From positions 1,718,501 to 1,782,500 of the forward strand of contig NZ_CP096563.1 in assembly GCF_023221595.1 (NCBI RefSeq): a stretch of 64,000 nt of DNA. Reading direction: 5' to 3'. Origin of the DNA: Rhodococcus qingshengii JCM 15477. GTDB taxonomy: Bacteria; Actinomycetota; Actinomycetes; Mycobacteriales; Mycobacteriaceae. The notes below the pieces were generated by a model. The model ran no database searches. It was not told the DNA's origin and saw only the letters and a program-made list of their open reading frames with translations. The position numbers were made by a program, and so were the translations under genes. Positions 36,380 to 52,667 of the stretch are shown one piece after another. Positions within the stretch are counted from its first letter, which is position 1, and the number at the start of each line of letters is the position of its first letter.

Positions 36380-36439
36380 CGCCCCACTTTGCACTTGCAC
36401 CAAGTTCCCATTTCGATACAGCGCACTGGAGAATCACCG

Positions 36440-38002: not shown

Positions 38003-38009
38003 CGCATCC

Positions 38010-38049
38010 GTGAGGGGTTGAGGAGTCTGTGGACTCCTCAACCGCTCAC
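38010..38049 (+). terminator. Hairpin between hemD and hemB
   Basis: GGTTGAGGAGTC (38016-38027) pairs with GACTCCTCAACC (38032-38043) around TGTG, extended by GTGAG/CTCAC past one mismatch. There is no T-run and hemB follows 28 nt later, so it may be a partial terminator, attenuator or processing site that sets hemB levels. Confidence 0.5.
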
Positions 38050-38077
38050 AGGTTCCGACGAAGGAGGGCTACTTCTC

Positions 38078-39052
38078 GTGTTTCCCACTCATCGCCCTCG
38101 CCGGCTCCGGCGCACTCCTGCGCTCCGGCGACTCGTGGCAGAGACCTCGCTCGAACCCCGGCACCTCGTTTTGCCGATGTTCGTCGCCGACGGCATCGAC
38201 GCACCGCGTGAGATCAGTTCCATGCCAGGCGTTTTCCAGCACACCCTCGATTCGCTGCGGTCCGCAGCAGTGGAAGCGGTGGAAGCCGGCGTCGGTGGCC
38301 TGATGCTCTTCGGTGTTCCGAAGGCGGAGGACAAGGATCCCCAGGGGTCCGGTGCCTCCGATCCCGACGGAATCCTCAATGTCGGATTGCGCGCTCTGGC
38401 AGACGAACTCGGCGATTCGACGGTCATCATGGCAGATACCTGCCTCGACGAGTTCACCGATCACGGCCACTGCGGCGTGTTGACTGCCGGCGGCGCTGTC
38501 GACAACGACGCGACCTTGATCCGATACGTCGAAATGGCTCTCGCGCAAGCTGAATCGGGTGCGCACCTGCTCGGACCCAGCGGCATGATGGACGGTCAGG
38601 TGGCTGCGATCCGTGGTGCACTCGATGCTTCGGGGTATGTCGATGTCGGCCAGCTCGCCTATGCCGCGAAATATGCGTCAGCGTTCTACGGGCCGTTCCG
38701 TGAAGCCGTCGGATCCTCACTGCAAGGCGACCGTCGTACGTATCAGCAGGACGGCGCCAATCGCCGCGAGTCGATGCGCGAGGTAGACCTCGACGTCGCC
38801 GAGGGCGCCGACATGGTGATGGTCAAGCCTGCAATGTCATACCTGGACATTCTGCGTGAGACCGCCGACCGGTCCCCGGTTCCGGTCGCTGCGTACCAGA
38901 TCTCGGGGGAGTACTCGATGATCACCGCGGCCGCGCAGAACGGGTGGATCGATCGGGACGCGGCGATTCTCGAATCGCTCATCGGCATTCGCCGCGCCGG
39001 TGCCGACGTGGTCCTCACGTACTGGGCGTCGGAAGTTGCCGGATGGCTGTGA
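38078..39052 (+). CDS. hemB: Delta-aminolevulinic acid dehydratase (porphobilinogen synthase)
   Basis: 324 residues. Condenses two 5-aminolevulinate molecules to porphobilinogen. Conserved [20 protein letters not shown], the metal region [40 protein letters not shown] and the Schiff-base lysine in [11 protein letters not shown]. The metal segment keeps two of the three zinc cysteines, with Asp at the middle one, a hybrid between Zn and Mg types. GTG 38078 follows AAGGAGGG. Likely read through from hemD past a hairpin. Confidence 0.95.
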
Positions 39053-39101
39053 CGGAGTCACGCATGGTGGCTGCGCCGGTATCGACCGATACGCTGGTGT
39101 C

Positions 39102-39764
39102 ATGACCGAGCAGTGGCCGCCGTCGCGCCAGGAACCGCCCCGCCGGGAACCTCCCTACGAGAACCAGCCGTTCGAGAATCAGCCGTACCGCGAACTCGGA
39201 CCGATGCCGACGGGTCAGATCCCGGGATACGGCCCCGGTTACAACGGATACCCGGGACCTGCGCCGAAACCCGAGCCGCCGACGGACGTCGTGACTGCGA
39301 TTCAGTTGTGGTGGGCTGTGACGGCGCTGGGGTTGGTCCAGGGCGGCGCGATGATCTGGATGCTGCTCGGGCAGAAGTCGATGTTCGTCGACGAGATGCT
39401 CAGAAATCAGGCAGCTGTCGACGCCGGTCTGACGCGTTCCGACGTGGAGGGCATGTTCCCACTGGTCATCGTGTTCTCTGCGGTTTTGGTCGTGATCGTC
39501 ACCGCGGTGTTCCTTCTGTTCGTGCGCGCGATGAGTCGCGGCAAGAACTGGGCTCGAATGTTGCTGACGTTCTGTGGCGTCTTCATGCTGGTCTCCGCGA
39601 TCCCGGTGATCTTCGGGCTCGGCGGCGACGGCGGCGCGGCCACTCTGCTGTTCGGCGGAGCGGAAATCCTGCAGGCAGTTGCTGCTGTCGGGGCGATCGT
39701 GATGATGCACCGAAAAGAGTCCAATCCGTACTTTCTTCGTTTCCCCCCGGCGGGGAACCGGTAG
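39102..39764 (+). CDS. Pro-rich N-terminal, multi-pass membrane protein (Rv0513/0514 region)
   Basis: 220 residues. A hydrophilic N-terminus of about 60 residues, rich in Pro/Tyr/Gly (EPPYENQPFENQPYRELGPM), precedes four transmembrane segments (AVTALGLVQGGAMIWMLL; LVIVFSAVLVVIVTAVFLLF; MLLTFCGVFMLVSAIPVIFG; LFGGAEILQAVAAVGAIVMM). The motif SRGKNWARMLLT between helices 2 and 3 is typical of small actinobacterial membrane proteins. Function unknown. It follows hemB as small membrane genes do in mycobacteria. ATG at 39102 has no Shine-Dalgarno. Confidence 0.8.
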   Translation: MTEQWPPSRQEPPRREPPYENQPFENQPYRELGPMPTGQIPGYGPGYNGYPGPAPKPEPPTDVVTAIQLWWAVTALGLVQGGAMIWMLLGQKSMFVDEMLRNQAAVDAGLTRSDVEGMFPLVIVFSAVLVVIVTAVFLLFVRAMSRGKNWARMLLTFCGVFMLVSAIPVIFGLGGDGGAATLLFGGAEILQAVAAVGAIVMMHRKESNPYFLRFPPAGNR

Positions 39765-39821
39765 GTAGCTCGGGGTACTGTGAAACGGGTCACTGAAGTA
39801 GTAGGGGAGAGGTCGGACGCG

Positions 39822-39977
39822 ATGAGTTCTCAGGAAGCCCTGCGTACGGAAAGCACCCACGACGCGCCACTGCGCCAACGTGGTTCACGCACCGAAGTGA
39901 TCTTGTTCGCGATCCTCGGAGCCTCTGTTCTGGTGACACTCCTGATGCTCATGATTCCGGGCATCGTCAGCGGATAG
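39822..39977 (+). CDS. Small single-pass membrane protein
   Basis: 51 residues: a polar N-terminus (SSQEALRTESTHDAPLRQRG) followed by one transmembrane helix (EVILFAILGASVLVTLLMLM) ending in PGIVSG. The ATG at 39822 has GGGGAGAGG upstream and is preferred over an in-frame start at 39780. No homologue is recognised. Sits in a run of four small membrane genes after hemB. Confidence 0.65.
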   Translation: MSSQEALRTESTHDAPLRQRGSRTEVILFAILGASVLVTLLMLMIPGIVSG

Positions 39978-39992
39978 CGCACACTTGAACCC

Positions 39993-40430
39993 GTGAGTAT
40001 CTCTACGAAGGTCAGGCGCCCGACGGCTGTCGAGGCAGCATTCTGGCTGTGGATCGCCAGCGCGTTCCTGCTCATACTCTTCGGCCTGATCAATGTCACC
40101 AGCGCTTCGTATTCGTTGCGTGAGCAGTTCACCGATCAAGGCGTTTCTGCCGGAAACATCGACATCTACGTCACCTTCGTGCGGGTGTCAGGGCTGGTTC
40201 TGCTGTTGACCGGCCTCGCGATCGGCGGCCTCGCCGGTCCCACTCGCGCCGGACGGGCGCTGTGCCGACGGATCCTGGTCATCGTGTCCGGAGTGTTCGC
40301 GGTGCTGCAGATCGCGCTGGTCGTGGCCGGGATCAGTACCGTGCTCGCGCTGGTTGTTCCCGTCATGCTGATCTGTGCCTGCGTCGCGATCTACCGCGAC
40401 ACCACCCGAAGTTGGTTTGCCCGTGGCTGA
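39993..40430 (+). CDS. Four-helix membrane protein
   Basis: 145 residues with four hydrophobic segments (AAFWLWIASAFLLILFGLIN; VRVSGLVLLLTGLAIGGLAG; LVIVSGVFAVLQIALVVAGI; VLALVVPVMLICACVAIY). The start is GTG at 39993. Its last 8 nt overlap the next gene. The topology resembles its neighbour at 39102, and the two may be diverged relatives. Function unknown. Confidence 0.75.
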   Translation: MSISTKVRRPTAVEAAFWLWIASAFLLILFGLINVTSASYSLREQFTDQGVSAGNIDIYVTFVRVSGLVLLLTGLAIGGLAGPTRAGRALCRRILVIVSGVFAVLQIALVVAGISTVLALVVPVMLICACVAIYRDTTRSWFARG

Positions 40431-40938
40431 TCGCGCGCCGGAAATCGGCCCGGACGTTCTGTACTACGAACCGGGTTCTCGGTGGTGGGCCATCGCGTTC
40501 GGTCCGATCTTCTGCCTGATCGCCTTGGTCATCGAACTGTTCACGGGCCCGGTGGTGCATTGGTTCGGTCTGGCGATGTTCGCCGTGATCCTCACCGGAT
40601 TGGTCTACGTGCAGGTGATCGCAGCACGGCGGCACGCGAGCGTACTTCTGACCGCGACCACGTTGCGTCAGGGAACCGAAGAGGTGCCGATCACCGAGAT
40701 CGCCGAGGTGTTCCCGGAGTCCGACGACGCTGCCTACGAGGACGAAATGGAACCGTGGGAAACGGCACGCGCGCTCGGTGAGCTGTCCGGAGTGCCCAGG
40801 CGTCGGCACGGTATCGGCTTACGTTTGACCACCGGGGGATTGGTGCGGGCGTGGGCAAAGGACGATCAGGCACTGCGCGAGGCGTTGAGTCAGGTCGTTG
40901 TGGTTGGTGTCGAACCGGACGGGTCTGCCGATGACTGA
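40423..40938 (+). CDS. Membrane protein with PH-like domain (DUF3093-like)
   Basis: 171 residues. Two transmembrane helices (WWAIAFGPIFCLIALVIELF and WFGLAMFAVILTGLVYVQV) are followed by a soluble part with LTATTLRQGTEEVPITEIAEV and RLTTGGLVRAWAKDDQALRE. The strand pattern suits a bacterial PH-type domain as in DUF3093 proteins; this assignment is tentative. Starts at GTG 40423 inside the end of the preceding gene and overlaps the next by 8 nt, so the three are one operon. Confidence 0.72.
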   Translation: MADRAPEIGPDVLYYEPGSRWWAIAFGPIFCLIALVIELFTGPVVHWFGLAMFAVILTGLVYVQVIAARRHASVLLTATTLRQGTEEVPITEIAEVFPESDDAAYEDEMEPWETARALGELSGVPRRRHGIGLRLTTGGLVRAWAKDDQALREALSQVVVVGVEPDGSADD

Positions 40939-41203
40939 GCCACAGCCATCCCCGCGTGTCGACGTGAAGACGTGGATCGGTGTACTCGGTATCGTCGCCG
41001 CAACGATTCTGGCGGTCGTGTGCTGGCGAGCGGGTACGACGACGTCCGACTTCGGACCGATACTGGAGGGCGCTCCACCGTTCGAGAGCACGCACTACGA
41101 CGGTCTCTGGATCTCGGGCGCCGGGTTGTCGATTCTGGTTGCGGGGCTGATGGCCATCGATGTCGTGCGCCGCGTCCGGGTGGGCTTCGTCGCATCGCAG
41201 TAG
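40931..41203 (+). CDS. Small two-helix membrane protein
   Basis: 90 residues with two transmembrane segments (WIGVLGIVAATILAVVCW and GLWISGAGLSILVAGLMAID) and an extracytoplasmic loop of about 30 residues. The ATG at 40931 overlaps the preceding stop by 8 nt. Unknown function; last of the small membrane gene string. Confidence 0.72.
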   Translation: MTEPQPSPRVDVKTWIGVLGIVAATILAVVCWRAGTTTSDFGPILEGAPPFESTHYDGLWISGAGLSILVAGLMAIDVVRRVRVGFVASQ

Positions 41204-41208
41204 CCCTC

Positions 41209-41228
41209 ATACGGGTAGGGGGTATAGT
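41209..41228 (+). promoter_or_regulatory. CsoR-gene promoter and candidate operator
   Basis: ATACGGGTAGGGGGTAT (41209-41225) has ATAC/GTAT ends around a G-rich centre, the style of CsoR-family operators, and overlaps a TATAGT -10 element (41223-41228). The ATG at 41235 is 7 nt after the -10, so the message would be leaderless. Confidence 0.5.
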
Positions 41229-41234
41229 TGCGGT

Positions 41235-41516
41235 ATGAGTAGTTACAGCCCCGAGCAGGACGATCTGCTCAAGCGCCTTCGTCGTATCGAAGGTCAGGTA
41301 GCCGGAATTTCACGCATGGTCGCAGACGACCGGTACTGCATCGACGTGCTCACCCAGGTATCCGCCGCGACGAGCGCGTTGCAGTCCGTGTCCCTGAAGC
41401 TTCTCGACGCCCACCTTGCGGGTTGCGTCGTCGAAGCTGCCAAGCAGGGTGGTCCGGAAGCGGACGTCAAGATCAAGGAAGCTCAGGCGGCCATCGCTCG
41501 CCTCGTTCGTTCGTAA
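41235..41516 (+). CDS. CsoR/RcnR-family metal-sensing repressor
   Basis: 93-residue all-helical DUF156 protein. It keeps the full Cu(I) ligand set of CsoR: Cys35 (DRYCIDVL), His60 and Cys64 (DAHLAGCV). It should release DNA on binding Cu(I), although persulfide sensors of the same family share two of these cysteines. No copper exporter or metallochaperone is adjacent; the closest candidates are the small membrane genes upstream. Probably autoregulated through the G-rich dyad at its promoter. Confidence 0.9.
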   Translation: MSSYSPEQDDLLKRLRRIEGQVAGISRMVADDRYCIDVLTQVSAATSALQSVSLKLLDAHLAGCVVEAAKQGGPEADVKIKEAQAAIARLVRS

Positions 41517-41528
41517 GGTGTCGGTCCG

Positions 41529-42140
41529 TCACTCCGTGATGGACCGCGCGAGCGCCCGGGCGGAGAAGCTCACGAAGTACTCGGGTGTGACTTCTTTGGC
41601 GATGTTGATGACGATGGTGTCCGACAGGCCTTTGAGTCCGGAGAGCACGAGATGGATCAACGCGGGGTCGTCGATCAACCGGCTCCCTTCGGCTGCAGCA
41701 GATTCGGTGAGCGCTCGAATCAATGCCGAGTTGTAGACCGCTACGGATGCGTGAAGTTCCCGCATGCTTTCTCGGTCGGACCCGGCCATGCCTTCGATGT
41801 CGCGCCAAGTCGTGGTGAGTCGACCCACCCGTGCCCAGTGCCGAGCAAACTCGGAAATCATGGACTCGAGTAAGGCGCTCAGTCCCTGCTCGCGGGGGAG
41901 CGAGTTCACGAAGTCCGCCATTTCCAGCTGACTTTCGCTGAGGAGGGCGGCGAAGATGTCCTGCTTGTCGACGAAGTACTGGTAGATCAGGCCAGTGCTG
42001 GTGCCGGCTCGTTTGGCGACAGCGCGGATCGTGAGCGCGGAGTAGCCTCCTTCGTCCAGAAGCGAGATCGCCGCGTCGAGAGTTCGGCGTCGACGCACTT
42101 CGGCGTCGCCGTAGATCGACTTGCTGCTGGTACTGCTCAT
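41529..42140 (-). CDS. TetR-family regulator of the PAPS/sulfation operon
   Basis: 203 residues. The HTH lies at about 18-62 (TLDAAISLLDEGGYSALTIR, then AVAKRAGTSTGLIYQYFVDK). The ligand domain is helical and contains no obvious metal or redox motif. It diverges from cysQ-cysD-cysNC across 254 nt that carry three palindromes on a GAAC-N3-GTTC core, its probable operators. This makes it the best candidate regulator of the sulfation cluster. Ligand unknown. Confidence 0.88.
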   Translation of the reverse strand: MSSTSSKSIYGDAEVRRRRTLDAAISLLDEGGYSALTIRAVAKRAGTSTGLIYQYFVDKQDIFAALLSESQLEMADFVNSLPREQGLSALLESMISEFARHWARVGRLTTTWRDIEGMAGSDRESMRELHASVAVYNSALIRALTESAAAEGSRLIDDPALIHLVLSGLKGLSDTIVINIAKEVTPEYFVSFSARALARSITE

Positions 42141-42183
42141 TTGATCACCGTAGTCGCGGTGGTCGGCATCCTCAATTCACATC

Positions 42184-42276
42184 GAACACTGTTCGTTGTC
42201 GAGCGCCGTCCAGAATTCGATGTGACTCAGATCATAGAATGAACATTGTTCGAAATAGAATGAACATCGTTCATTC
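42184..42276. promoter_or_regulatory. Three related palindromes between TetR gene and cysQ
   Basis: GAACACTGTTC (42184-42194), GAACATTGTTC (42241-42251) and GAATGAACATCGTTCATTC (42258-42276, 8-bp arms). All share GAAC-N3-GTTC. The last two are 17 nt apart centre to centre odd ends, close enough for cooperative binding by TetR dimers. Position in a divergent promoter region supports control of both genes. Confidence 0.65.
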
Positions 42277-42394
42277 TGGTGTTACGGTATGGCGCAGACC
42301 ACATCGAGGCCAGTGCAAAGTGCTGGACACTCTGCGGTCGGCCTGACCTTTCTTCCCGTATCGATCGGGAGATCTACACAGTTGTGGAGTACCT

Positions 42395-43141
42395 ATGACA
42401 CGCACTAACGATGAACGCGCGGCGATCGACATCGCCGCTGCGGCTGGAGAACTTCTGCTCGACCATCGGAAATCCCTCGGCGAAAACGACGGTGATGTCG
42501 CGACTTTCAAGAACGCGGCCGATCGGCTCAGTCACGAATTCATCGTCGCCGAACTTGCCCGACGCTTTCCTGCGGATGCAGTGCTGTCGGAGGAAGGGGC
42601 TGACGACCTCGCGAGGCTGGCTGCGGATCGGGTGTGGATCGTCGACCCTCTCGACGGCACCCGTGAGTACGGCGAGGCCGGACGACCGGACTGGGCCGTT
42701 CATGTTGCACTGACCGAAAACGGTGTCCTCACAACCGGTGCGGTCGCAATGCCTGCCCTTGGCGTCACCTATTCGAGCAGCGATGATCGAACCGAACGGG
42801 ATGCCGCGACGCCGGTTCGAGTCGTCGTATCGCGGACGCGTCGTCCGGAACCGGTCATGCGCATGGCCGACTCGATGGGCGCGGAGTTGATCGAAATGGG
42901 ATCCGCCGGAGCCAAAGCAATGGCGGTCGTCTCGGGTGAGGCAGACATCTATGCACATGCGGGCGGACAGTACGAGTGGGATTCGGCGGCGCCCGTTGCT
43001 GTCGCACGTGCTGCGGGACTGCATGTTTCGCGTATCGATGGCAGCGAACTGCGCTACAACCAGGAAAACCCGTGGTTGCCGGATCTGCTGATCTGCCGAC
43101 CCGAACTCGCCCCGAAAGCACTGGAGGAACTGGGCCGATGA
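42395..43141 (+). CDS. cysQ: 3'(2'),5'-bisphosphate nucleotidase CysQ
   Basis: 248-residue member of the inositol monophosphatase superfamily. Metal motifs are SEEGADD and [10 protein letters not shown], with [16 protein letters not shown] at the C-terminus. It dephosphorylates 3'-phosphoadenosine 5'-phosphate (PAP), the product left after sulfotransferase action, to AMP. TGGAG precedes the ATG at 42395. It is first in an operon with cysD (ATGA overlap) and cysNC; being made with PAPS synthesis and a sulfotransferase, its natural job here is PAP removal. Confidence 0.9.
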
Positions 43142-44043
43142 CCGCGACACTGACGCACCTCGAACGACTCGAAGCCGAGAGCATTCACATCATGCGTGAA
43201 GCTGTTGCCCAGAGCGAGAACCCGGTGATGTTGTACTCGGTGGGCAAGGACTCCGCCGTGATGCTGCATCTGGCGCGCAAGGCCTTCTATCCGTCGAAGC
43301 TGCCGTTTCCGCTTCTGCACGTCGATACCACGTGGAAGTTCCGTGAAATGTACAAACTTCGTGACAGTACCGCTGCTGCAGGCGATCTCGATCTGATCGT
43401 CCACACCAACCCGGACTGCGTGAAGCAGGGGATCAACCCGTTCACTCACGGCAGCGCTGTCCATACCGATATGTGGAAGACCGAAGGCCTCAAACAAGCC
43501 CTCGATCACTACAAGTTCGACGCTGCATTCGGCGGCGCCCGACGTGACGAAGAAAAATCCCGCGCCAAGGAACGCATCTTCTCGATCCGATCAGCTGCGC
43601 ACCGTTGGGATCCCAAGCAGCAGCGACCGGAACTGTGGCGGATGTACAACGTCCGCAAAGCGCCGGGCGAGAGCCTGCGCGTCTTCCCTCTCTCGAACTG
43701 GACCGAGCTGGATGTGTGGGAATACATACGCCAGGAAGAGATTCCGATCGTTCCGCTGTATTTTGCCGACAAGCGGCCCGTCGTCGAGCGGGACGGTGCG
43801 CTGATCATGGTCGACGACGACCGGATGCCGTTGCTGCCGGGAGAGACTCCGGAACTCAAGAGCGTTCGTTTCCGCACCCTCGGCTGCTACCCGCTGACCG
43901 GAGCCGTCGAATCGACCGCAACGAGCCTGACCGAGATCATCTCGGAAATGTTGCTCACCACCACTTCCGAACGCCAGGGACGGGTCATCGACCACGACTC
44001 CAGCGCGTCGATGGAGAAGAAGAAGCAAGAGGGGTACTTCTGA
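43138..44043 (+). CDS. cysD: Sulfate adenylyltransferase subunit 2
   Basis: 301 residues. Adenylylates sulfate to APS together with CysN. The PP-loop is YSVGKDS (Ser34-Ser39); [29 protein letters not shown] and [15 protein letters not shown] are conserved. The C-terminal tail [10 protein letters not shown] is the standard CysD ending. Overlaps cysQ by ATGA and cysNC by TGATG. Confidence 0.96.
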
Positions 44044-45944
44044 TGACTGTTTCCTCGGATCTGATCGCTGACGACATCGAGGCGTACCTCGAACGTCATG
44101 CGAACAAGAGCATGCTGCGATTCATCACCTGCGGCAGCGTCGACGACGGCAAGAGCACCTTGATCGGCCGTCTGCTCTACGAATCGAAACTCGTCTTCGA
44201 CGACCAGTTGACGGCGCTCGAAGCCGATTCGCGCAAGAGCGGAACCCAGGGGGAGGGGCTCGATTTCGCGCTCCTGGTCGACGGCCTCGCCGCCGAACGT
44301 GAGCAGGGCATCACGATCGACGTCGCCTACCGCTACTTCACGACCGAGCGACGCAAGTTCGTCGTCGCCGATACTCCGGGGCACGAGCAGTACACCCGAA
44401 ACATGGTGACGGGCGCGTCGACCGCCGATCTTGCTGTGATCCTTGTCGATTCCCGCAAGGGGATACTGACTCAGACCCGCCGGCACTCGTATCTGGTGTC
44501 GTTGCTGGGGATCAAGCACGTGGTGCTTGCCGTGAACAAACTCGACCTCGTCGACTACTCGCAAGAGGTCTTCGATGCCATTACCGCGGATTACGCAGAG
44601 TTCGCTCACGAGATCGGTCTGGACGGGTTCGTCGCCATCCCGATGTCGGCATACATGGGTGACAATCTCACCGAGCGCAGTGCGAATACCCCGTGGTACT
44701 CCGGACCAAGCCTGATCGAGCATCTCGAAAGCGTGGACATCGACGATGCTGCCGCCGCGGCTCCGTTCCGGATGCCGGTGCAGTGGGTCAACCGGCCGGA
44801 CCTCGACTTCCGCGGATTCTCCGGCCAGATCGTTTCAGGCACCGTATCTCCCGGAGATCCCATCCGCGTGCTCCCCAGTGGAAAGACGTCCACAGTCGAG
44901 CGCATCGTGACCATGGGTGGCGACCTCGACGTTGCCGGTGCGGGCCGCTCGGTCACCATCACGCTCGCCGACGAGATCGACATCAGTCGCGGTGATGTGC
45001 TGTCCATCGGCGACAATCCGCCGGCCGTAGCCGATCAGTTCGAGGCCTGCATCGTCTGGATGGGTGAGGCTCCCATGCTGCCCGAACGGCCGTTCCTGTG
45101 CCAGATCGGTACCGTCACAGTCAATGCGCGCATCACCAAACCGAAACACAAGATCAACGTCAACACTCTCGAGAAGACCGCAACGACTACTCTCGCGCTC
45201 AACGAAATCGGTGTGTGCAACCTCAGTTTCGATCGACCGGTCCCGTTCGACCCGTACGTCGGCAACCGTGACACCGGTAGCTTCATCCTCATCGACCGCC
45301 TTACCAACGGCACTGTCGGTGCGGGCATGATCACGCACTCGCTGCGTCGATCGGACAACATTCACTGGCAATCCGTCGACGTCGACGAGGCCGCGCACAC
45401 CAGGCTCAAGGGACACCAACCCGCAGTTCTGTGGTTCACCGGTCTCTCCGGTTCGGGAAAGTCGACCATCGCGAACGATGTCGAGCGTCAACTGCACGCA
45501 CTCGGCGCGCACACCTACCTCCTCGACGGAGACAACGTCCGTCACGGGCTGAATCGAGACCTCGGATTCACCGAAGCCGACCGCGTCGAGAACATCCGTC
45601 GCGTCACCGAGGTCACCCGACTGATGGCGGACGCCGGTCTGATCGTGCTCGCGTCCTTCATTTCACCGTTCGAGGCCGAGCGTCATGCCGCCCGTGAATT
45701 GATCGGCGACGAACAGTTCGTCGAAATCTTCGTCGACACCGCTCTTGCCGTCGCAGAGGAGCGAGATCCCAAGGGTCTGTACAAGAAGGCTCGACGGGGC
45801 GAGTTGGTGAACTTCACCGGAATCGATTCGCCGTACGAACCGCCGCAGAACCCTGACATTCACGTCGACACCAGTGTCACGACGACCGAGGACGCTGCGA
45901 TCGCGATCGTCGACCATCTCCGCGCCCGCGGAACCATTTCTTGA
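44043..45944 (+). CDS. cysNC: Bifunctional sulfate adenylyltransferase subunit 1/APS kinase
   Basis: 633-residue fusion. Residues 1-440 are the CysN GTPase, with GSVDDGKST (31-39), DTPGHEQY and NKLD; GTP hydrolysis drives APS formation with CysD. Residues 450-633 are APS kinase (CysC), with the Walker [10 protein letters not shown] starting at Gly467, and [10 protein letters not shown]. The product is PAPS, the sulfate donor for sulfotransferases. Ends 24 nt before the SnoaL-like pseudogene. No APS or PAPS reductase gene is nearby. Confidence 0.96.
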
Positions 45945-45968
45945 TCCGCCTGAACACGAGGAGCATCC

Positions 45969-46327
45969 ATGCCTGACAGGGCTGAAATAGTTTCTGCCGT
46001 AGAAGATTACGTCAAGTGTCTCGGACGTCACGACGTCGACGGACTGGTTGCGCTGTTTGCGCTCGACGCAGTTCAACACGAACCGCTGGGGTCCAGACCT
46101 ACCGCGGAATCGACGAGATTCGCGAATTCGATACCGCGAACGCGCAGGTCGATTTCACAGTCAGCCTGCTCGGTCCGATTTCGGTGACGGGAAAGTACGC
46201 AGCCATGCAGCTTCGGGTGCAGCGCGCCGGTATCCCTGACTTCGCTGCCACCGATGTGTTCGAGTTCGACGAGAACGGCAAGATCATCTCCCTGAGTGTT
46301 GTTCTCGATCCGCAGGCGCTGTGCTGA
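45969..46327 (+). pseudogene. SnoaL/NTF2-like protein, frameshifted
   Basis: The first frame gives MPDRAEIVSAVEDYVKCLGR and then HDVDGLVALFALDAVQHEPLG, a typical NTF2-like N-terminus. The continuation (VQTYRGIDEIREFDTANA, then strands up to SVVLDPQALC) lies in another frame. The two join if one G is added to the GGGG run at 46088-46091, giving EPLGVQTYRGIDEI. It would then be a 119-residue nuclear-transport-factor-2-like protein, a fold used by ketosteroid isomerase and polyketide cyclases. Either a recent null mutation or a homopolymer sequencing error. Its end overlaps the SDR start by 7 nt, as in an intact operon. Confidence 0.75.
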
Positions 46328-47112
46328 CCCATCAGGGCCTGCTGGCAGGCAAGGTTGTCGTCGTCTCGGGAGTGGGCCCGGCGCTGGGTCGTTCGATTGC
46401 GCTGCAGAGTGCGGCGGCCGGAGCGAAGGTTGTTCTGGCTGCCCGCACACCCGAGCGCTTGGAATCGGTGGCAAGGGAGATTCGAGACCGCGGCGGAATC
46501 GCGTTGGCCGTACCGACAAACCTCACCGACGTCGATTCGATCGCTTCGTTGGCGGAGACAACTGTCGCTGAGTTCGGTGCGGTGCATTGCTTGGTGAACA
46601 ACGCATTTGTTCAACCCGCGCAGGTCCCGCTCCTGGACGCCGACGTGGTGTCCATCCAGTCGGGCATCGACATCAACTTGCTCGCGGCGTTGAACGTCAC
46701 CAGAGAATTTGCTCCGGCATTGATCGAGTCGCACGGGTCCGTCGTGATGGTCACGTCCATGGTGTTGCGCAACCAGCTTCCCGGGTTCGGGGCCTACCGC
46801 ATCATGAAATCCGGGCTCCTGGCAATGGCACGCAGTTTGTCGATCGATCTCGGTCCCAAGGGCGTTCGAGTCAATTCGGTTGCTCCCGGCTATATCTGGG
46901 CGGACTCGGTCAAGAACATGTTCGAGAAGAAGGCGGCGGCGGCAGGAGTCGACCCCAAGGTGATCTACGACGAGATCGCAGCGGGCGCCGATCTGCGCCG
47001 ATTGCCGGAGCCAGATGACATCGCAAACGCTGTCGTCTTCCTCCTGTCCGATTCAGCGAGGGCCATCACAGGGCAATGTCTCGACGTCAACTGCGGTCAC
47101 ACGCACCACTGA
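46321..47112 (+). CDS. Short-chain dehydrogenase/reductase
   Basis: 263 residues. The cofactor loop is SGVGPALGRS, the LVNNAF motif stands in place of NNAG, and the catalytic residues are Ser146, Tyr159 and Lys163 (AYRIMK). It oxidises or reduces a hydroxyl/keto group with NAD(P). The C-terminus QCLDVNCGHTHH is characteristic of the classical family. Starts with GTG overlapping the SnoaL-like gene, 22 nt before the sulfotransferase gene. It probably prepares or modifies the hydroxyl that is sulfated. Confidence 0.9.
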   Translation: MLTHQGLLAGKVVVVSGVGPALGRSIALQSAAAGAKVVLAARTPERLESVAREIRDRGGIALAVPTNLTDVDSIASLAETTVAEFGAVHCLVNNAFVQPAQVPLLDADVVSIQSGIDINLLAALNVTREFAPALIESHGSVVMVTSMVLRNQLPGFGAYRIMKSGLLAMARSLSIDLGPKGVRVNSVAPGYIWADSVKNMFEKKAAAAGVDPKVIYDEIAAGADLRRLPEPDDIANAVVFLLSDSARAITGQCLDVNCGHTHH

Positions 47113-47134
47113 TCAACTCATACAAGGACTAGCC

Positions 47135-48280
47135 ATGACACAGGATTACGACGGCATCGGTTCCATCGATGACCTGCACCAGGCTGCGCGCGAGGCGGCC
47201 GGGTACGAAAACTTCGGCAGCGAAAGCTATCTCGAAGGACTTCGAGTTCTCCTCGAGTCGTTCCAGAACGAGGCCGACCTCACTCCTCACGGCAAGGTGA
47301 TCGCTCGCAAGATGATCGTCGGAGCGCTCGCGGGTCGCCTGACCAGTGAGGCCGGATTCGCGAAATATCCAGAGCACGTAGATGTTCCGATCGAACGCCC
47401 GATCTTCGTGGTCGGGTTGACCCGCACCGGCAGCACCGCGCTGCACCGCTTGCTCGGTGCCGACCCAGCGCATCAGGGCGCCGAGATGTGGCTCGCCGAG
47501 ACGCCGCAGCCGCGCCCCGAGCGCGACACGTGGTCGGAGAACGAAGATTACGTTCGCTCCGACGCCTTCTACCGTGCTCGCCAGCGTAACGAGGCAGACC
47601 TGATGAAGGTTCATTTCATGGGGGCGGAGGAGGTCGAGGAATGCTGGCGGCTGCTGCAGCAGACGATGCTCTCGACCGCGTTCGAGACGGTGGCGTACGT
47701 GCCGAGTTACACCCGGTGGCTGGCGGAGCAGGACTGGACCGAAACATATGCGCGGCACAAGAAGAACCTGCAGTTGATCGGGCTGCACGACCAGGACAGA
47801 CGGTGGGTGCTCAAAAGCCCGAGCCATGTCTTCGCGATCGACGAGATCATGTCGGTCTATCCGGATGCACTGTTCGTTCGGACCTTCCGGGACCCGTTGA
47901 CATCGATGGCGTCCACCTTCAGCCTCGTAGAGCAGGGCGGACACGACATGTCGAGGGCCTTCGATCGTCCGGCCATCGGGCGCACGCAACTGGAGTTGTG
48001 GGCGCGAGGGAATGCGAACTTCAACAATGCCCGTAGCCGTTACAACCCCGATCAGTTCATCGACGTCGACTACAAGGACTTCATCGCCGATGCGGTCGGC
48101 ACCGTCGAGAAGATCTATGCACAGTTCGCCCTGCCCTTCACAGACGACGCCCGCGCCGCGGTGGAGGCGTCGCATCAGGCCAGCCTTGCCGAGCACCGTC
48201 GTCCGTCGCATCGCTATTCGCTCGAGGATTTCGGCGTGAGCGCTGCCGACGTCGAAGCGAAGTTCGCCACCACACCCTGA
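47135..48280 (+). CDS. PAPS-dependent sulfotransferase
   Basis: 381 residues of the Sulfotransfer_3 type. The 5'-phosphosulfate loop is FVVGLTRTGSTALHRLLGAD (Arg97-Thr101). The 3'-phosphate site is the FVRTFRDPLTSMAS region, and WVLKSPSHVFAIDEIM lies between them. It transfers the sulfuryl group from PAPS to a hydroxyl acceptor, leaving PAP. The N-terminal 85 residues are a helical cap common in actinobacterial relatives. It follows PAPS synthesis, SnoaL and SDR genes in the same orientation, and ends at a 22-bp hairpin. Acceptor unknown; a steroid, polyketide or lipid alcohol would fit the SnoaL/SDR company. Confidence 0.9.
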   Translation: MTQDYDGIGSIDDLHQAAREAAGYENFGSESYLEGLRVLLESFQNEADLTPHGKVIARKMIVGALAGRLTSEAGFAKYPEHVDVPIERPIFVVGLTRTGSTALHRLLGADPAHQGAEMWLAETPQPRPERDTWSENEDYVRSDAFYRARQRNEADLMKVHFMGAEEVEECWRLLQQTMLSTAFETVAYVPSYTRWLAEQDWTETYARHKKNLQLIGLHDQDRRWVLKSPSHVFAIDEIMSVYPDALFVRTFRDPLTSMASTFSLVEQGGHDMSRAFDRPAIGRTQLELWARGNANFNNARSRYNPDQFIDVDYKDFIADAVGTVEKIYAQFALPFTDDARAAVEASHQASLAEHRRPSHRYSLEDFGVSAADVEAKFATTP

Positions 48281-48289
48281 AGCCCTCCG

Positions 48290-48339
48290 GCCCTGTGCGC
48301 CTTTTTGGTAGTGCCGACTACCAAAAAGGCGCACAGGGC
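48290..48339. terminator. Long 22-bp hairpin after the sulfotransferase gene
   Basis: A perfect inverted repeat, 48290-48311 with 48318-48339, around TGCCGA. The arms include CGCCTTTTTGGTAG / CTACCAAAAAGGCG. It lies 10 nt after the sulfotransferase stop and 30 nt before the next ATG, so it either separates two transcripts or attenuates read-through. The T-run is inside the stem, not after it. Confidence 0.6.
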
Positions 48340-48368
48340 GAAGCCCTAACCGAAACAAGGAGATTCAC

Positions 48369-49430
48369 ATGAATGCTGTTTGGGAAAAGTTCTGCGCAGA
48401 TCTGCTCGAGGTCGGAAAGGTCCTGGAAGACGAGATCGTCCCTCAGGATCCGCTGACTCAAGCCGAGGGCGTCCGCTACCTGAGTCGGTTGCTTCGGTAC
48501 GGCACGATCAACTGTGTCGAGTACACCGATCCGCGGTGGCCGCAGTTCTCGTCGGCTCCGAACCCGAACATGATGACGAAGATCGGTGCCGACAACCCGG
48601 ACAACGTCTACATGCGCGCCAACATCTCCGGTAAGTACAACTACCGGATCATCGGCACCCGAGGCACCGTCCCGCTGATCACCTTCGGCTCGCGCGTAAA
48701 TCGGTACCACATCGACGGCACCATGCTGCAGACCGGCGATCTGCATATCCACGACCTCGAGGTCGACGAGAACGGCCGTTTCGAGTTCATCGCGAGCGTC
48801 GACAAGCCCGATGAGGGCGCTTGGCTGCCTTTGGCGCCCGACAGCAACCTCATCTCCGTTCGGCAAACTCACCAGGATCGGCGCAACGAGGTCATCGGTG
48901 ATCTGACCATCGAATGCCTGAACCCGGACGGGGAGTTCGTCCCGTTGACTCCGGAAGAGATCGGCGAGCGCCTCACCAAGTCCGTCGGGATCGTGAAGGG
49001 GATGGCGGAGACCTTCCTGGAATGGTCGCGCAAATTCCAGCCGCACACCAACGAGATCTTCGACTGGGGACAGGACTACTTCCAGGACGCCGGCGGCGAT
49101 CCGACGATCTTCTACTTCCACGGTTACTGGAAGCTCGCCGAAGACGAGGCGTGGGTCATCGAGACCGAGGTTCCGAACTGCGAGTACTTCAACTTCGTGC
49201 TGCAGAACTTCTGGGTCGAGTCCCTCGACTACAACCGCACGAACATCTACATCAACAATCACACCGCGAAGCTCAACGACGACGGCACCATGACAATCGT
49301 CGTGGCGGCGAAGGATCCGGGTTATGGCAACTGGATCGACACCGATTCGCATGCCGAGGGGACATGGGCGCTGCGCTGGATCAAGGCGGACTCGCACCCG
49401 ATCCCGACGTCGAAGGTAGTCAAGATCTGA
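48369..49430 (+). CDS. DUF1214 domain-containing protein
   Basis: 353 residues. The C-terminal 120 or so form DUF1214 (FYFHGYWKLAEDEAWVIE, NCEYFNFVLQNFW, DPGYGNWIDTDSHAEGTWAL); the N-terminal part is a family-specific region (EGVRYLSRLLRYG, YRIIGTRGTVPLITFG). No signal peptide or catalytic motif is recognised. Genes of this class are often found beside sulfotransferase or SDR genes in actinobacteria, from memory. AAGGAG lies 6 nt before the ATG. Role in the island unknown. Confidence 0.82.
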   Translation: MNAVWEKFCADLLEVGKVLEDEIVPQDPLTQAEGVRYLSRLLRYGTINCVEYTDPRWPQFSSAPNPNMMTKIGADNPDNVYMRANISGKYNYRIIGTRGTVPLITFGSRVNRYHIDGTMLQTGDLHIHDLEVDENGRFEFIASVDKPDEGAWLPLAPDSNLISVRQTHQDRRNEVIGDLTIECLNPDGEFVPLTPEEIGERLTKSVGIVKGMAETFLEWSRKFQPHTNEIFDWGQDYFQDAGGDPTIFYFHGYWKLAEDEAWVIETEVPNCEYFNFVLQNFWVESLDYNRTNIYINNHTAKLNDDGTMTIVVAAKDPGYGNWIDTDSHAEGTWALRWIKADSHPIPTSKVVKI

Positions 49431-49454
49431 CACGCTGACGGAGATTGGGAACGT

Positions 49455-51113
49455 ATGTACACCAGGAAGATTAGGTTCGGCCCTCGCTTTGTCGCGCTCG
49501 GGCTTGCCGGTGCATTGATGTTGGCCGGCTGCGCGTCGAGCAGTGGGGACAACTCGGGATCGGCTTCACCGAGCAGTAGTGGCGCAGCTGGTTTTGTGGG
49601 CGCCCCAGATGTGGGGGAGCGGATCGACGGCGGTGTTCTCACCTTCGGGTCCTATTCGTTCCCTTCCTCGTTGGACCCCACGAGAACGCAAGCCGCCGGT
49701 TCGACCGGCGGAACCGAAATGGCCGCGATTTACGACACGCTGGTACGCAGCGACTCCACAAACGGGAGCTTCGTGCCACAACTCGCGAAGACACTGTCGA
49801 ACAACAGCGACTTCACCTCGTACACCGTCACTTTGGCTGACGGCCTCACCTTCAGCGACGGAAGTCCGCTCGACGCGGAAGCGGTGAAGTGGAGTATCGA
49901 TCGATTCGTGGCAGGCAAGGGTGATGTATCGCAGACCTGGCTCAACATCGTGGATCGGATCGAGACGCCCGACGCCACCACAGTCGAATTCGTGCTCGAG
50001 CGGCCCTGGCGTCAATTCCCGGCGCTGTTGTCGCTCGGGCCCGGAATGATCGTTGCGCGAAGTTCAGGGGGAGAGGCAGGGTCGGTTTCAGGAACCGGGG
50101 AGAGAGCGTTCACACCGATCGGGGCGGGTCCGTTCACCTTGGCCAAGTTCGCCCCGCACGAAGAACTGGTACTCGCCGCACGCACGGATTATCAGGGCGG
50201 TAAACCTCCACTGGACACAGTGCGGTTTGTTCCCACGTCGGGTGCGCAGTCTCAGTACGAATCGTTGAAGAGCGGCCAGATCGACATGACGTACATCCTC
50301 CGCGACGAGGCCGTGATCGAACAAGCTCTCGACGACGGATACTCGGGTTACCTCAGTCCGACCGGACAGAACGGGATTGGCACGATCAACAACCGTGAGG
50401 GCAAGCCCGGGGCCGATGTTCGCGTCCGTCAGGCGATCGCCTACGGGGTGGATCCGGCGGCGGTCAATACCCGGGCGAACAACGGATTGGGCACCGCCAG
50501 TTCCGAACTGGTCCCGCAGACGTCACGTTGGTACAACAACACAGCAGGCATTCCGTTCGATCAGGTGAAGGCAAAGGCGCTGCTCGATCAAGCGAAGTCC
50601 GACGGGTACGACGGGAAACTCCGCTACCTCACCACCTCGGAGCCGAGCCAACAGGCGACGGCACTGACGGTTCAGGCGTCGCTGAACGCGATCGGTTTCG
50701 ACGTCACCATCGACTACGCGACCGATGTGACCGATCTGGTTCGACGGGTATACAAGGACCACGATTTCGACATGACCAGAGGTGGCGCTCCGGTCGGAGA
50801 AGAAGCGCCGTACCTCAATTTGTACAACAGTATGGCCAGTGATTCGAAGAACAACCCGTCCGGCTTCGCGGACCCGGAGATGGACGCGATGATCACAGCT
50901 GTGCAGACGGCATCGACGGACGATGCTGTCCGTGAGGCGATCAGCAAGGTGCAGGAGTACGCCAACGCGACTGTGCCTTACGTGATCTGGGGGCCGGCGT
51001 CGGTGTTGACCGCATGGGACGGCAATGTTCACGGCGTCGTACGCAACATCACCGACATCATGTTCTTGGGCGGCGCTTGGATCTCGCCCAACGGCGAAAC
51101 GGTGGAACGATGA
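49455..51113 (+). CDS. Family 5 ABC substrate-binding lipoprotein (peptide/nickel type)
   Basis: 552 residues. A lipoprotein signal peptide ends in LMLAGC (Cys26), followed by a Ser/Gly-rich linker and an SBP_bac_5 domain (DGLTFSDGSPLDAEAVKWSI, PFTLAKFAPHEELVLAA, RQAIAYGVDP, PYVIWGPASVL). It should be anchored outside the membrane and bind an oligopeptide or other bulky solute. No permease or ATPase genes accompany it, so it must share a transporter encoded elsewhere. Its stop overlaps the LLM gene (ATGA). Confidence 0.9.
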   Translation: MYTRKIRFGPRFVALGLAGALMLAGCASSSGDNSGSASPSSSGAAGFVGAPDVGERIDGGVLTFGSYSFPSSLDPTRTQAAGSTGGTEMAAIYDTLVRSDSTNGSFVPQLAKTLSNNSDFTSYTVTLADGLTFSDGSPLDAEAVKWSIDRFVAGKGDVSQTWLNIVDRIETPDATTVEFVLERPWRQFPALLSLGPGMIVARSSGGEAGSVSGTGERAFTPIGAGPFTLAKFAPHEELVLAARTDYQGGKPPLDTVRFVPTSGAQSQYESLKSGQIDMTYILRDEAVIEQALDDGYSGYLSPTGQNGIGTINNREGKPGADVRVRQAIAYGVDPAAVNTRANNGLGTASSELVPQTSRWYNNTAGIPFDQVKAKALLDQAKSDGYDGKLRYLTTSEPSQQATALTVQASLNAIGFDVTIDYATDVTDLVRRVYKDHDFDMTRGGAPVGEEAPYLNLYNSMASDSKNNPSGFADPEMDAMITAVQTASTDDAVREAISKVQEYANATVPYVIWGPASVLTAWDGNVHGVVRNITDIMFLGGAWISPNGETVER

Positions 51114-51985
51114 AGTGGTCCTTGGCCGGTGCGATGATCGACGCCCTGGAACTGTGCGAGTTGGCGCAGGTCGCCGAAGAGGTGGGGTTCGACGGAATCG
51201 CGATGCCGGATTCCGTGTTCTATCCGGAGCAGGTGTCGGCGCCGTACCCGTACACTGCTGACGGGAAGCGGATGTGGGCGCCCGAGACGCCGATGCCTGA
51301 TCCGTTCATTGCCATGGCGGCGATGGCGGCCGTCACATCGCGAATTCAGTTCTACACCAACGTGTTCAAACTTCCACTGCGCGATCCGCTGTTGGTAGCC
51401 AAGCAGGTCGCGACCATGGCCGTGATGTCGCGAAACCGCGTCGCTCTCGGCGTCGGTTTGTCCTGGATTCCCGAGGAATTCACCTTCACCGGTACCGAGA
51501 TGCGCACCCGCGGCGCGCGTACCGACGAAGCCATCGAGATCATCAAGGCGGTGTGTGCGGGACGTGGGCCGGAATGGGTCGAATACCACGGCAAGCACTA
51601 CGATTTCGACGCTCTGATGATCAGTCCTGCTCCGGAGATTCCGGTTCCGATCTACATCGGTGGGCACAGCGAACCGGGGTTGCGTCGTGCAGCCAGGCTG
51701 GCTGACGGTTGGATGTCGGTGAACACGACCAAAGCCGAATTAGCCTGCGCCATCGATCGTCTCACGGAATTGCGGGTCGAGTACGGTCGTGCCGATGTTC
51801 CTTTCGGCGTCAACGTCTCGCCGACGGATGTTCGTGATCTGGACGGATATCGCGAACTCGAGACTCTCGGAGTCACGGAAATCAGAGTTTTGCCCTGGTA
51901 TCACTACGGAGTTGACGCCGGTGATCGTCAGGGACGACTCGACTCCGTTCGGCGGTTTGCCGAGGAGGTCATCGCTCAGTACTGA
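51110..51985 (+). CDS. LLM-class F420/FMN-dependent oxidoreductase
   Basis: 291-residue luciferase-like TIM barrel. Typical stretches are EEVGFDGIAMPDS, VFKLPLRDPLLVAKQVATM, RVALGVGLSWIPEEF, RGARTDEAIEIIKAVC and PVPIYIGGHSEPGLRRAA. Many rhodococcal members use F420 and act on steroid or polyketide-like compounds. Translationally coupled to the substrate-binding protein and probably the last gene of the sulfation-island transcript. Convergent 10-nt overlap with the TetR gene. Confidence 0.87.
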   Translation: MKWSLAGAMIDALELCELAQVAEEVGFDGIAMPDSVFYPEQVSAPYPYTADGKRMWAPETPMPDPFIAMAAMAAVTSRIQFYTNVFKLPLRDPLLVAKQVATMAVMSRNRVALGVGLSWIPEEFTFTGTEMRTRGARTDEAIEIIKAVCAGRGPEWVEYHGKHYDFDALMISPAPEIPVPIYIGGHSEPGLRRAARLADGWMSVNTTKAELACAIDRLTELRVEYGRADVPFGVNVSPTDVRDLDGYRELETLGVTEIRVLPWYHYGVDAGDRQGRLDSVRRFAEEVIAQY

Positions 51986-52536: not shown

Positions 52537-52571
52537 GACATCGACCTCTGTGCTCGCTCGCCGACCGCGTT

Positions 52572-52634
52572 GTCAACGGCGTTGACTATAACGTGTCAAC
52601 GGTGTTGACTGTTGAGTCTGTCAACGGTGTTGAC
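52572..52634. promoter_or_regulatory. Triple TetR operator GTCAAC-N3-GTTGAC
   Basis: Three 15-bp inverted repeats: GTCAACGGCGTTGAC (52572-52586), GTCAACGGTGTTGAC (52595-52609) and GTCAACGGTGTTGAC (52620-52634). Start-to-start spacing is 23 and 25 bp, about two helical turns, suiting stacked dimers on one face. Confidence 0.85.
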
Positions 52635-52667
52635 AGCTAGATGCGGTTAGTGAAGAGAGCGTGGAAT

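What the first reader, a model, noticed from the sequence alone, without database searches (positions are those of the whole stretch)
41529..48280. A self-contained, TetR-controlled PAPS-generating sulfation cluster
CysD and CysNC make PAPS, the sulfotransferase uses it, and CysQ removes the PAP produced, all in one orientation behind a divergent TetR gene with palindromic operators. No CysH/CysI/Cys reductase gene is in the cluster, so assimilation is not its obvious purpose. SDR and SnoaL-fold genes next to the sulfotransferase suggest the acceptor is an alcohol on a steroid-, polyketide- or lipid-like molecule. I know of mycobacterial sulfolipid and sulfated-menaquinone sulfotransferases, but not of this gene combination as a described system. 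The product would be a new sulfated metabolite.
Basis: partly seen in the sequence, partly recalled or inferred. Interest (0 to 1): 0.78.

Follow-up and report, generated by a model that had tools for sequence, protein, structure and literature searches.

The report
Self-supplied sulfation operon, likely steroid-linked
A soil Rhodococcus carries a switchable set of genes that probably makes its own activated sulfate and attaches it to an unknown alcohol; relatives of the set sit under or beside the controls of steroid breakdown, which hints at an overlooked sulfation step there.

Summary
A TetR gene faces cysQ-cysD-cysNC-SnoaL-SDR-sulfotransferase (ST) across three operator-like palindromes. 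The set runs on past 48,280 into DUF1214, a binding protein and an F420-type oxidoreductase. The SnoaL frame is broken here but intact in 10 of 10 relatives. It is not the cysteine pathway: a separate cysH-cysD-cysN set exists, and all three APS kinases of the genome lie beside a sulfotransferase gene.

The set ("type A", 9 of 28 genomes of the genus) is a paralogue of a core module ("type B", 26 of 28): DUF1214-SDR-ST, the Rv3531c-Rv3530c-Rv3529c triad, usually facing cysD-cysNC. A box for KstR, the cholesterol regulator, precedes the type B triad in 57 of 70 loci and cysD in 30 of 64. In Williamsia and Gordonia the triad follows hsaA-hsaC-hsaB. The window itself has no KstR box. Type A is chimeric: ST and SDR resemble type B; CysD, CysNC and DUF1214 resemble Proteobacteria, which carry similar clusters.

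Best reading: an inducible sulfation step on a steroid-like alcohol under breakdown. Substrate, purpose and DUF1214's role are inferred. New variant of a known kind; ST with PAPS genes is known from Bacteroides.

The parts
41529..42140 (-). TetR-family regulator, divergent
   Evidence: PF00440 E 2.5e-16; TetR in the same place in 10 of 10 type A loci
42184..42272 (.). Three operator-like palindromes GAACAnYGTTC (42184, 42241, 42262)
   Evidence: 0 of 100 shuffles reach the count; two or three sites in 10 of 10 relatives
42260..42288 (+). Possible promoter overlapping the last palindrome (A/T-TGAAC, 17 nt, TA box)
   Evidence: one such match in the gap in the window and 10 of 10 relatives, loose pattern, no control run; the stricter sigma-70 scan found none
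42395..43141 (+). CysQ-like PAP phosphatase
   Evidence: PF00459; below the TIGR01331 cut-off; best solved relative 5djf
43138..44043 (+). CysD, ATP sulfurylase small subunit
   Evidence: NF009214 550 bits over cut-off 413
44043..45944 (+). CysNC, ATP sulfurylase GTPase subunit fused to APS kinase
   Evidence: NF004035 1052 bits over cut-off 715; PF01583 E 7e-68
45969..46327 (+). SnoaL-like gene, reading frame broken in this window
   Evidence: intact in 10 of 10 relatives; L025 copy SnoaL_2 E 1.4e-11
46321..47112 (+). Short-chain dehydrogenase/reductase (PRK07890 subfamily)
   Evidence: NF005909 352 bits over cut-off 258
47135..48280 (+). Sulfotransferase, Sulfotransfer_3 family, Stf1 relative
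   Evidence: PF13469 E 2e-53; 2zq5 E 2.7e-119
48290..48339 (.). Perfect 23-bp inverted repeat, a dispersed repeat of this genome
   Evidence: z -8.15; 41 arm matches in the genome with up to 3 mismatches
48369..49430 (+). DUF1214-family protein, partner of the sulfotransferase
   Evidence: PF06742 28.5 bits over cut-off 25; 6ans E 6.7e-88; 10 of 10 type A loci
49455..51113 (+). Solute-binding protein, family 5, lipoprotein-like start
   Evidence: PF00496; 6 of 10 type A loci
51110..51985 (+). LLM class F420-type oxidoreductase
   Evidence: TIGR03619 209 bits over cut-off 167; 9 of 10 type A loci

Best explanation
The window holds an inducible sulfation operon. When an unknown ligand lifts the TetR repressor from its paired palindromes, CysD and CysNC turn sulfate into PAPS. 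The sulfotransferase moves the sulfate onto a hydroxyl of a hydrophobic, steroid-like alcohol that the SDR (with the SnoaL and LLM enzymes) prepares or processes, and CysQ clears the PAP left over. DUF1214 is a frequent partner of the transferase and probably handles the same compound. The module is a second, separately assembled copy of a core KstR-linked module and most likely serves breakdown or handling of such a compound, not cysteine synthesis. Shown by sequence: gene content and order, palindromes, the parallel modules, KstR boxes at type B, mixed ancestry. Inferred: PAPS flow, substrate class, breakdown purpose, one transcript, role of DUF1214.
For: Separate cysH-cysD-cysN set with APS-reductase signatures in CysH (signatures from PMC8557817). 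Only three APS kinases in the genome, each in a cysNC beside a sulfotransferase gene. CysD and CysNC within 10 kb of the ST in 74 of 80 related loci, DUF1214 in 80, SDR in 79. KstR box before the type B triad in 57 of 70 loci and a strict one before cysD in 30 of 64, against about 0.5% of control windows; both boxes in the own-genome copy L009; KstR gene present; hsaA, hsaC and hsaB directly before the triad in L054. PAPS genes of type A are of another lineage than those of type B, so the pairing looks to have arisen at least twice. A similar run of CysD-CysNC-CysQ-ST-DUF1214 follows meta-cleavage genes in Novosphingobium. DUF1214-ST pairing: 20 of 31, chance mean 0.11.
Against: The window cluster has no KstR box, so its steroid link is by kinship only. 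No substrate, ligand or transcript is known. Six of 80 loci have the triad without cysD and cysNC within the stored flank, and among 12 ST-bearing genomes of the phylum sample an APS kinase lies near a DUF1214-ST pair only in the window's own genome and G077. 11 of 31 DUF1214 relatives have no ST within 3 kb, and DUF1214 occurs in acyl-CoA clusters without an ST. The PMC6429209 table marks the Mtb triad genes among those not proven essential for cholesterol use, as far as the passages show. The hairpin after the ST might end the transcript. The SnoaL gene may be dead in this strain.
Confidence: 0.5

Rival explanations
1. Biosynthesis: the operon makes a sulfated lipid, polyketide or terpenoid for the cell surface or for export.
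For: Own PAPS supply and own TetR fit a specialised product. Solo sulfotransferases of mycobacteria make sulfolipids (Stf0, cited in PMC3141025, passages). MFS genes lie beside two type A clusters (L023, L026; read from sequence starts, not tested).
Against: No PKS, NRPS, acyltransferase or glycosyltransferase among the genes scanned in 35405-53684. Type B relatives lie in the KstR regulon and beside hsa genes; proteobacterial relatives lie beside breakdown genes.
Confidence: 0.25
2. Sulfo-activation: sulfation turns a poor leaving group into a good one, DUF1214 (or SnoaL) then eliminates sulfate to give an alkene or rearranged product, and the sulfate is activated again by the co-transcribed genes. 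A hidden step of steroid or terpenoid breakdown.
For: DUF1214-ST pairing in breakdown contexts; PAPS genes under the same control as the ST would be needed if every substrate molecule is sulfated. Sulfotransferase-driven elimination is known in curacin and olefin biosynthesis (recalled); the window ST is 31% identical to a Planktothrix stretch annotated as type I PKS.
Against: DUF1214 also occurs without an ST; its fold relatives are uncharacterised; no sulfated intermediate of cholesterol breakdown is known to me (recalled).
Confidence: 0.13
3. Detoxification or storage: the sulfate conjugate is a way to hold or expel excess hydroxylated steroid, phenol or drug, as in animal phase II metabolism.
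For: TetR control by ligand; a sulfatase gene (PF00884, E 1.6e-51) beside the cluster in L025 could reverse it.
Against: The sulfatase neighbour was seen in one of the ten type A loci (the flanks of the others were not all scanned against Pfam); no exporter gene belongs to the conserved set.
Confidence: 0.09
4. A spare sulfate-assimilation operon for cysteine, with the sulfotransferase beside it by accident.
For: CysD and CysN also feed assimilation in many bacteria (known pathway).
Against: A cysH-cysD-cysN set lies elsewhere, its CysH has APS-reductase signatures so PAPS is not needed, and the cys-ST linkage holds in 74 of 80 loci.
Confidence: 0.03

Closest known systems
Mycobacterial KstR-regulon triad Rv3531c-Rv3530c-Rv3529c (Stf1)
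   Same: DUF1214, SDR and PF13469 sulfotransferase together; the solved relative of both STs is 2zq5 (its identity as Stf1 is recalled). A KstR site with positive binding is listed before Rv3531c (PMC1995591, passages).
   Different: The window set is a paralogous clade (402 against 537 bits for the type B ST), has cysQ-cysD-cysNC in the same run, a TetR with its own palindromes and no KstR box.
Type B module of Rhodococcus and Nocardia (L009 and others)
   Same: DUF1214, SDR, ST, CysD, CysNC, CysQ and a SnoaL-fold gene in one place
   Different: Two divergent operons with an IclR gene and KstR boxes instead of one run with a TetR; CysD 47%, CysNC 50%, DUF1214 27% identical
Bacteroides BT_0416 cholesterol sulfotransferase with PAPS genes Bt_0411-0415
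   Same: A PAPS-dependent sulfotransferase next to its PAPS genes (PMC9417993, passages)
   Different: No DUF1214, SDR, KstR or TetR link mentioned in the passages seen; sequence relation to the window ST was not tested
R. qingshengii CysN2CD2-Stf0 cluster (L010 here)
   Same: CysD and CysNC beside a sulfotransferase, apart from the cysH set (PMC8557817, passages)
   Different: Stf0 family (PF09037), no DUF1214 or SDR; induced by sulfur source in that paper
Proteobacterial clusters: Paraburkholderia sprentiae L107, Novosphingobium sp. KACC 22771 L111
   Same: CysD, CysNC, CysQ, ST and DUF1214 in one run on one strand
   Different: ST only 29-35% identical; other gene order; ADH and VOC genes, or meta-cleavage genes, in place of the SDR-SnoaL pair

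Membership tests
PAPS-dependent sulfotransferase, Sulfotransfer_3 (PF13469) | Family profile over its cut-off | tested here: met
   182 bits over cut-off 27
PAPS-dependent sulfotransferase, Sulfotransfer_3 (PF13469) | Conserved PAPS-contacting residues (5' loop R97, G99, T101; 3' site R252, S260; roles recalled) | tested here: met
   Invariant in 18 of 18 aligned STs. A stricter written-out 5' loop motif fits 56 of 80, the 3' motif 74 of 80
PAPS-dependent sulfotransferase, Sulfotransfer_3 (PF13469) | Sulfuryl transfer from PAPS | not testable with these tools
   needs an assay
KstR-regulon triad (Rv3531c-Rv3530c-Rv3529c type) | DUF1214, SDR and ST of these families together | tested here: met
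KstR-regulon triad (Rv3531c-Rv3530c-Rv3529c type) | KstR box before the operon | tested here: not met
   0 matches of TNNAACNNGTTNNA in the window and 0 in 10 of 10 type A relatives between TetR and DUF1214; so the window set is filed as a paralogue, not a member
Sulfotransferase with its own PAPS operon (Bacteroides BT_0416 kind) | PAPS genes adjacent to the ST | tested here: met
Sulfotransferase with its own PAPS operon (Bacteroides BT_0416 kind) | Steroid as acceptor | not testable with these tools
   inferred from relatives only
Assimilatory sulfate reduction operon | cysH and sulfite reductase with cysD/cysN | tested here: not met
   none found in the cluster; cysH lies at C1:3970091

The most novel reading that the evidence does not exclude
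Actinobacteria and Proteobacteria share an unrecognised sulfo-activation step in steroid and related ring breakdown: a hydroxyl is sulfated with PAPS from a co-controlled gene set, and DUF1214 founds a new class of enzymes that eliminate or otherwise spend the sulfate ester. The KstR-linked triad, whose role is open, would be this step, and the window carries a second, TetR-run version rebuilt with proteobacterial parts.
Probability: 0.13. Interest if true: 0.88.

Novelty: new variant of a known kind. Interest (0 to 1): 0.58.

Why it matters
The DUF1214-SDR-Stf1 triad is placed among mycobacterial cholesterol genes (a KstR site before Rv3531c, PMC1995591) without a metabolic function in the papers my searches listed. 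Its Rhodococcus and Nocardia relatives prove here to be tied to a PAPS-making operon that also carries KstR boxes, so the steroid regulator appears to call up activated sulfate. That makes a sulfated intermediate or conjugate in steroid metabolism directly testable in harmless Rhodococcus, where each module can be deleted on its own. It also gives DUF1214, whose nearest solved structures here are uncharacterised, a functional partner.

Tried and rejected
Assimilation operon: rejected, because a separate cysH set exists and all three APS kinases are tied to sulfotransferase genes.

A regulon of the TetR elsewhere: WWYGAACAYYGTTCRWW gave one exact site and three one-mismatch sites outside the cluster. 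Their genes, seen only as translated starts, were not scanned, and no regulon is drawn from them.

TetR as a KstR relative: only the DNA-binding part matches, and BetI scores higher; no solved relative at 1e-8. Not used as evidence.

The 23-bp hairpin after the ST as an operon terminator: it is a dispersed repeat (41 arm matches), seen in that gap in 1 of 10 type A relatives (L020), and no T-run follows it. Not used as an operon end.

DUF1214 as always tied to sulfation: rejected (20 of 31; none in L113). PAPS genes as always tied to the pair: rejected. Among the 12 ST-bearing genomes of the phylum sample an APS kinase lies near a pair only in the own genome and G077; different contigs leave G129, G118 and G052 open.

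Sphingomonas L108 as a DUF1214 carrier: the protein before its ST shows no similarity to the window's DUF1214.

Literature: ten searches. In the rows listed (20 of 44, 20 of 89 and 15 of 26) no title or abstract describes the KstR-PAPS-triad link or the window's set. That holds for this library and these terms only.

Limits: the 80 loci are the best of 258 matches to a two-sequence query, weighted to Rhodococcus and Nocardia, and many are close kin, so counts are not independent. The KstR pattern is recalled, and fits sites printed in PMC1995591. In the control, draws within 2 kb of DUF1214 were skipped but stayed in the denominator, so the printed 0.46% is slightly low. The 13 type B loci without a box before DUF1214 are L030, L031, L039, L042, L047, L049, L054, L057, L060, L061, L062, L092 and L094; five of them (L047, L054, L057, L060, L061) have KstR-like boxes 2.9-3.1 kb upstream, in L054 between the kshA-like gene and hsaA. 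The name kshA is recalled; NCBIfam gave that protein no match at 1e-30.
Full report
WHAT IS THERE. The window is G000:C1:1718501-1782500 of a 7.5-Mb genome. Its nearest named relatives among the loci found are Rhodococcus erythropolis NBRC 15567 and Rhodococcus sp. P-2. From 41529: TetR on the minus strand, a 254-nt gap with three GAACAnYGTTC palindromes, then cysQ, cysD, cysNC, a SnoaL-like gene, SDR, sulfotransferase (ST), DUF1214, a family-5 binding protein and a TIGR03619 F420-type oxidoreductase, all on the plus strand. Junctions are overlaps or gaps of 22-24 nt except ST-DUF1214 (88 nt). A scan of 42000-52700 found no sigma-70-like site at all, so it neither supports an internal promoter nor shows the expected upstream one. 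The SnoaL frame is broken in this window; an intact frame stands in 10 of 10 type A relatives, so either the gene has recently decayed or the sequence has an error.

NOT CYSTEINE SYNTHESIS. PF01507 has seven matches in the genome: four cysD, one cysH and two on contig C6 that I did not identify (roles read). The assimilatory set is L008: cysH, cysD and cysN, preceded by a 590-aa gene in the place of the sulfite reductase that PMC8557817 describes in R. qingshengii (not tested here). Its CysH holds the APS-reductase signatures listed in that paper, and its CysN lacks an APS kinase. APS kinase (PF01583) occurs exactly three times in the genome: in the window, in L009 beside the only other PF13469 sulfotransferase, and in L010 beside an Stf0-family sulfotransferase (PF09037). 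So every APS kinase found in this genome is placed for sulfation.

A PARALOGOUS CORE MODULE. A scan of the species genomes with the two STs gave 258 matches, of which the best 80 were kept. Ten (L020-L029) have the window's layout, 'type A': TetR, CysD, CysNC, SDR, ST and DUF1214 in 10 of 10, CysQ in 9, LLM in 9, binding protein in 6. The other 70 ('type B') have DUF1214 and ST, 69 of them with the SDR, and usually an IclR gene with cysD-cysNC running divergently. Over all 80: DUF1214 80, SDR 79, CysD 74, CysNC 74, IclR 61, CysQ 47. L049, L061, L088, L092, L094 and L099 lack CysD and CysNC; L053 lacks a detected SDR. Within the genus, type B occurs in 26 and type A in 9 of 28 genomes. The type B ST is closer to 2zq5 (537 bits) than the window ST is (402 bits). 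That 2zq5 is Stf1 is recalled; that Rv3529c is the sulfotransferase Stf1 is said in PMC8882603 (passage).

LINK TO STEROIDS. PMC1995591 (passages) lists a KstR site between Rv3531c and Rv3532 with binding scored positive. PMC6429209 (table passages) lists Rv3529c, Rv3530c and Rv3531c among cholesterol genes. In type B loci the box TnnAACnnGTTnnA lies within 350 nt before DUF1214 in 57 of 70, against about 0.5% of control windows from the same loci, and before cysD in 30 of 64 with CysD. Another 22 of the 64 carry a weaker box there (TAGAACnnGTT with a degenerate end), which I did not count. The own-genome copy L009 has both boxes, and the genome encodes a KstR over the NCBIfam cut-off (338 against 280 bits). 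In L054 (Williamsia) hsaA, hsaC and hsaB, all over their cut-offs, directly precede DUF1214-SDR-ST, with 24 nt between hsaB and DUF1214. L057 and L060 (Williamsia), L061 (Gordonia) and L047 share these gene families nearby. L047 is labelled Kitasatospora but its genes match Williamsia almost one for one and may be a contaminant. The mycobacterial loci L088 and L099 have an acetaldehyde dehydrogenase and an aldolase of the same families nearby. The type A unit has no KstR box, so for the window the steroid link is by kinship only.

A CHIMERA. Against the genome's own type B, the window proteins are CysQ 55, CysD 47, CysNC 50, SDR 51, ST 53 and DUF1214 27% identical; against Novosphingobium L111 they are 53, 74, 68, 32, 29 and 46%. 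A tree of 27 CysNC rows puts type A with Paraburkholderia, Sphingomonas and Paracoccus (100/100) and apart from type B; it is rooted at the midpoint and warns of long branches (the Stf0-linked row). In a tree of 29 STs, A and B form one group (97/96) against two distant proteobacterial rows, with L030 and L031 of type B weakly next to A. So PAPS genes look to have been joined to this ST family at least twice. Five type A loci share flanking genes, no such flank was listed for the other five, and one is in Actinocorallia, so the unit has probably moved between hosts.

BEYOND ACTINOBACTERIA. Paraburkholderia sprentiae L107 has ADH-DUF1214-ST-VOC-CysQ-CysD-CysNC (its DUF1214 is 28% identical to type B, E 3e-36). 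Novosphingobium L111 has CysD-CysNC-CysQ-ST-DUF1214 downstream of acetaldehyde dehydrogenase and 4-hydroxy-2-oxovalerate aldolase (over cut-offs), a BphD/HsaD-like hydrolase (below cut-offs) and an FAD enzyme with weak ketosteroid-dehydrogenase matches. Sphingomonas L108 has ST, SDR and PAPS genes but no DUF1214 found. Sphingobium L113 has DUF1214 among acyl-CoA genes without an ST in the stretch shown. These were picked from plasmid hits, not drawn at random.

DUF1214. In 149 genomes drawn across the phylum there were 31 DUF1214 relatives and 35 STs at E 1e-20; 20 of the 31 lie within 3 kb of an ST on the same strand, chance mean 0.11. A few genomes with many copies weigh heavily in this count. 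Of the 12 genomes with an ST, an APS kinase lies close to such a pair in the window's own genome and in G077 only, so a dedicated PAPS supply is a special feature of the A and B modules, not of every pair. The model (39 rows, pLDDT 84.7, pTM 0.73) matches 6ans and, more weakly, 2p3y, 3vb9 and 3u07, all uncharacterised by title.

HOW IT MOST LIKELY WORKS. The TetR leaves its paired sites, the last of which overlaps a possible promoter. CysD and CysNC make PAPS, the ST sulfates an alcohol, and CysQ destroys PAP, which inhibits at least one mycobacterial sulfotransferase (PMC3141025, passages). SDR and SnoaL shape the substrate or product, and DUF1214 works on the same compound. The purpose is put on the breakdown side because of the KstR boxes, the hsa neighbourhood and the Novosphingobium neighbours; a secreted product remains possible. 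Its own control of PAPS supply would free sulfation from the control of cysteine synthesis (inference).

NOVELTY. The kind (a sulfotransferase with its own PAPS genes) is known: BT_0416 with Bt_0411 to Bt_0415 (PMC9417993, passages) and CysN2CD2-Stf0 (PMC8557817, passages). The combination with DUF1214 and SDR, the KstR boxes on both triad and PAPS genes, and the TetR chimera were not in the title or abstract of any paper that ten searches listed.

Noticed in passing
window 48290-48339; 41 arm matches across G000: A perfect 23-bp inverted repeat between ST and DUF1214 is one copy of a dispersed palindromic repeat (6 exact and 35 near arm matches in the genome, none for the reversed control), present at this spot in R. 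erythropolis L020 but in none of nine other type A loci.
   Followed up: partly
G065 and G123 (same family as the window's host): These genomes carry 8 and 7 STs and 9 and 6 DUF1214 relatives, with 7 of 9 and 5 of 6 DUF1214 paired with an ST, yet one APS kinase each: an expansion of ST-DUF1214 pairs fed by one PAPS source.
   Followed up: partly
L047: A contig labelled Kitasatospora arboriphila is nearly gene-for-gene the same as Williamsia muralis L054; perhaps contamination or a wrong label.
   Followed up: no
G000:C6:73049-73618 and C6:87635-88207: Two more PAPS_reduct-family proteins lie 14 kb apart on a small contig; not identified.
   Followed up: no
L010 (G000:C1:140000-158000): A third PAPS set: cysD-cysNC beside an Stf0-family sulfotransferase and a sulfatase, matching the CysN2CD2-Stf0 cluster of R. 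qingshengii in PMC8557817.
   Followed up: partly
L106: A type B module (cysNC, cysD, regulator, weak DUF1214, SDR, ST) lies on a 224-kb plasmid of Tsukamurella tyrosinosolvens.
   Followed up: partly
L009:4546-5700(-): The type B CysQ frame is 384 aa; its last 137 residues have no Pfam match, so it may be a fusion to an unknown domain.
   Followed up: no
L026:13318-14403: Speluncibacter jeojiensis has a second DUF1214 gene (60% identical to the window's) just downstream of the cluster.
   Followed up: no
L025:2098-4425: A large sulfatase gene (PF00884) lies beside the TetR gene in Rhodococcus spelaei; it might reverse the sulfation.
   Followed up: partly
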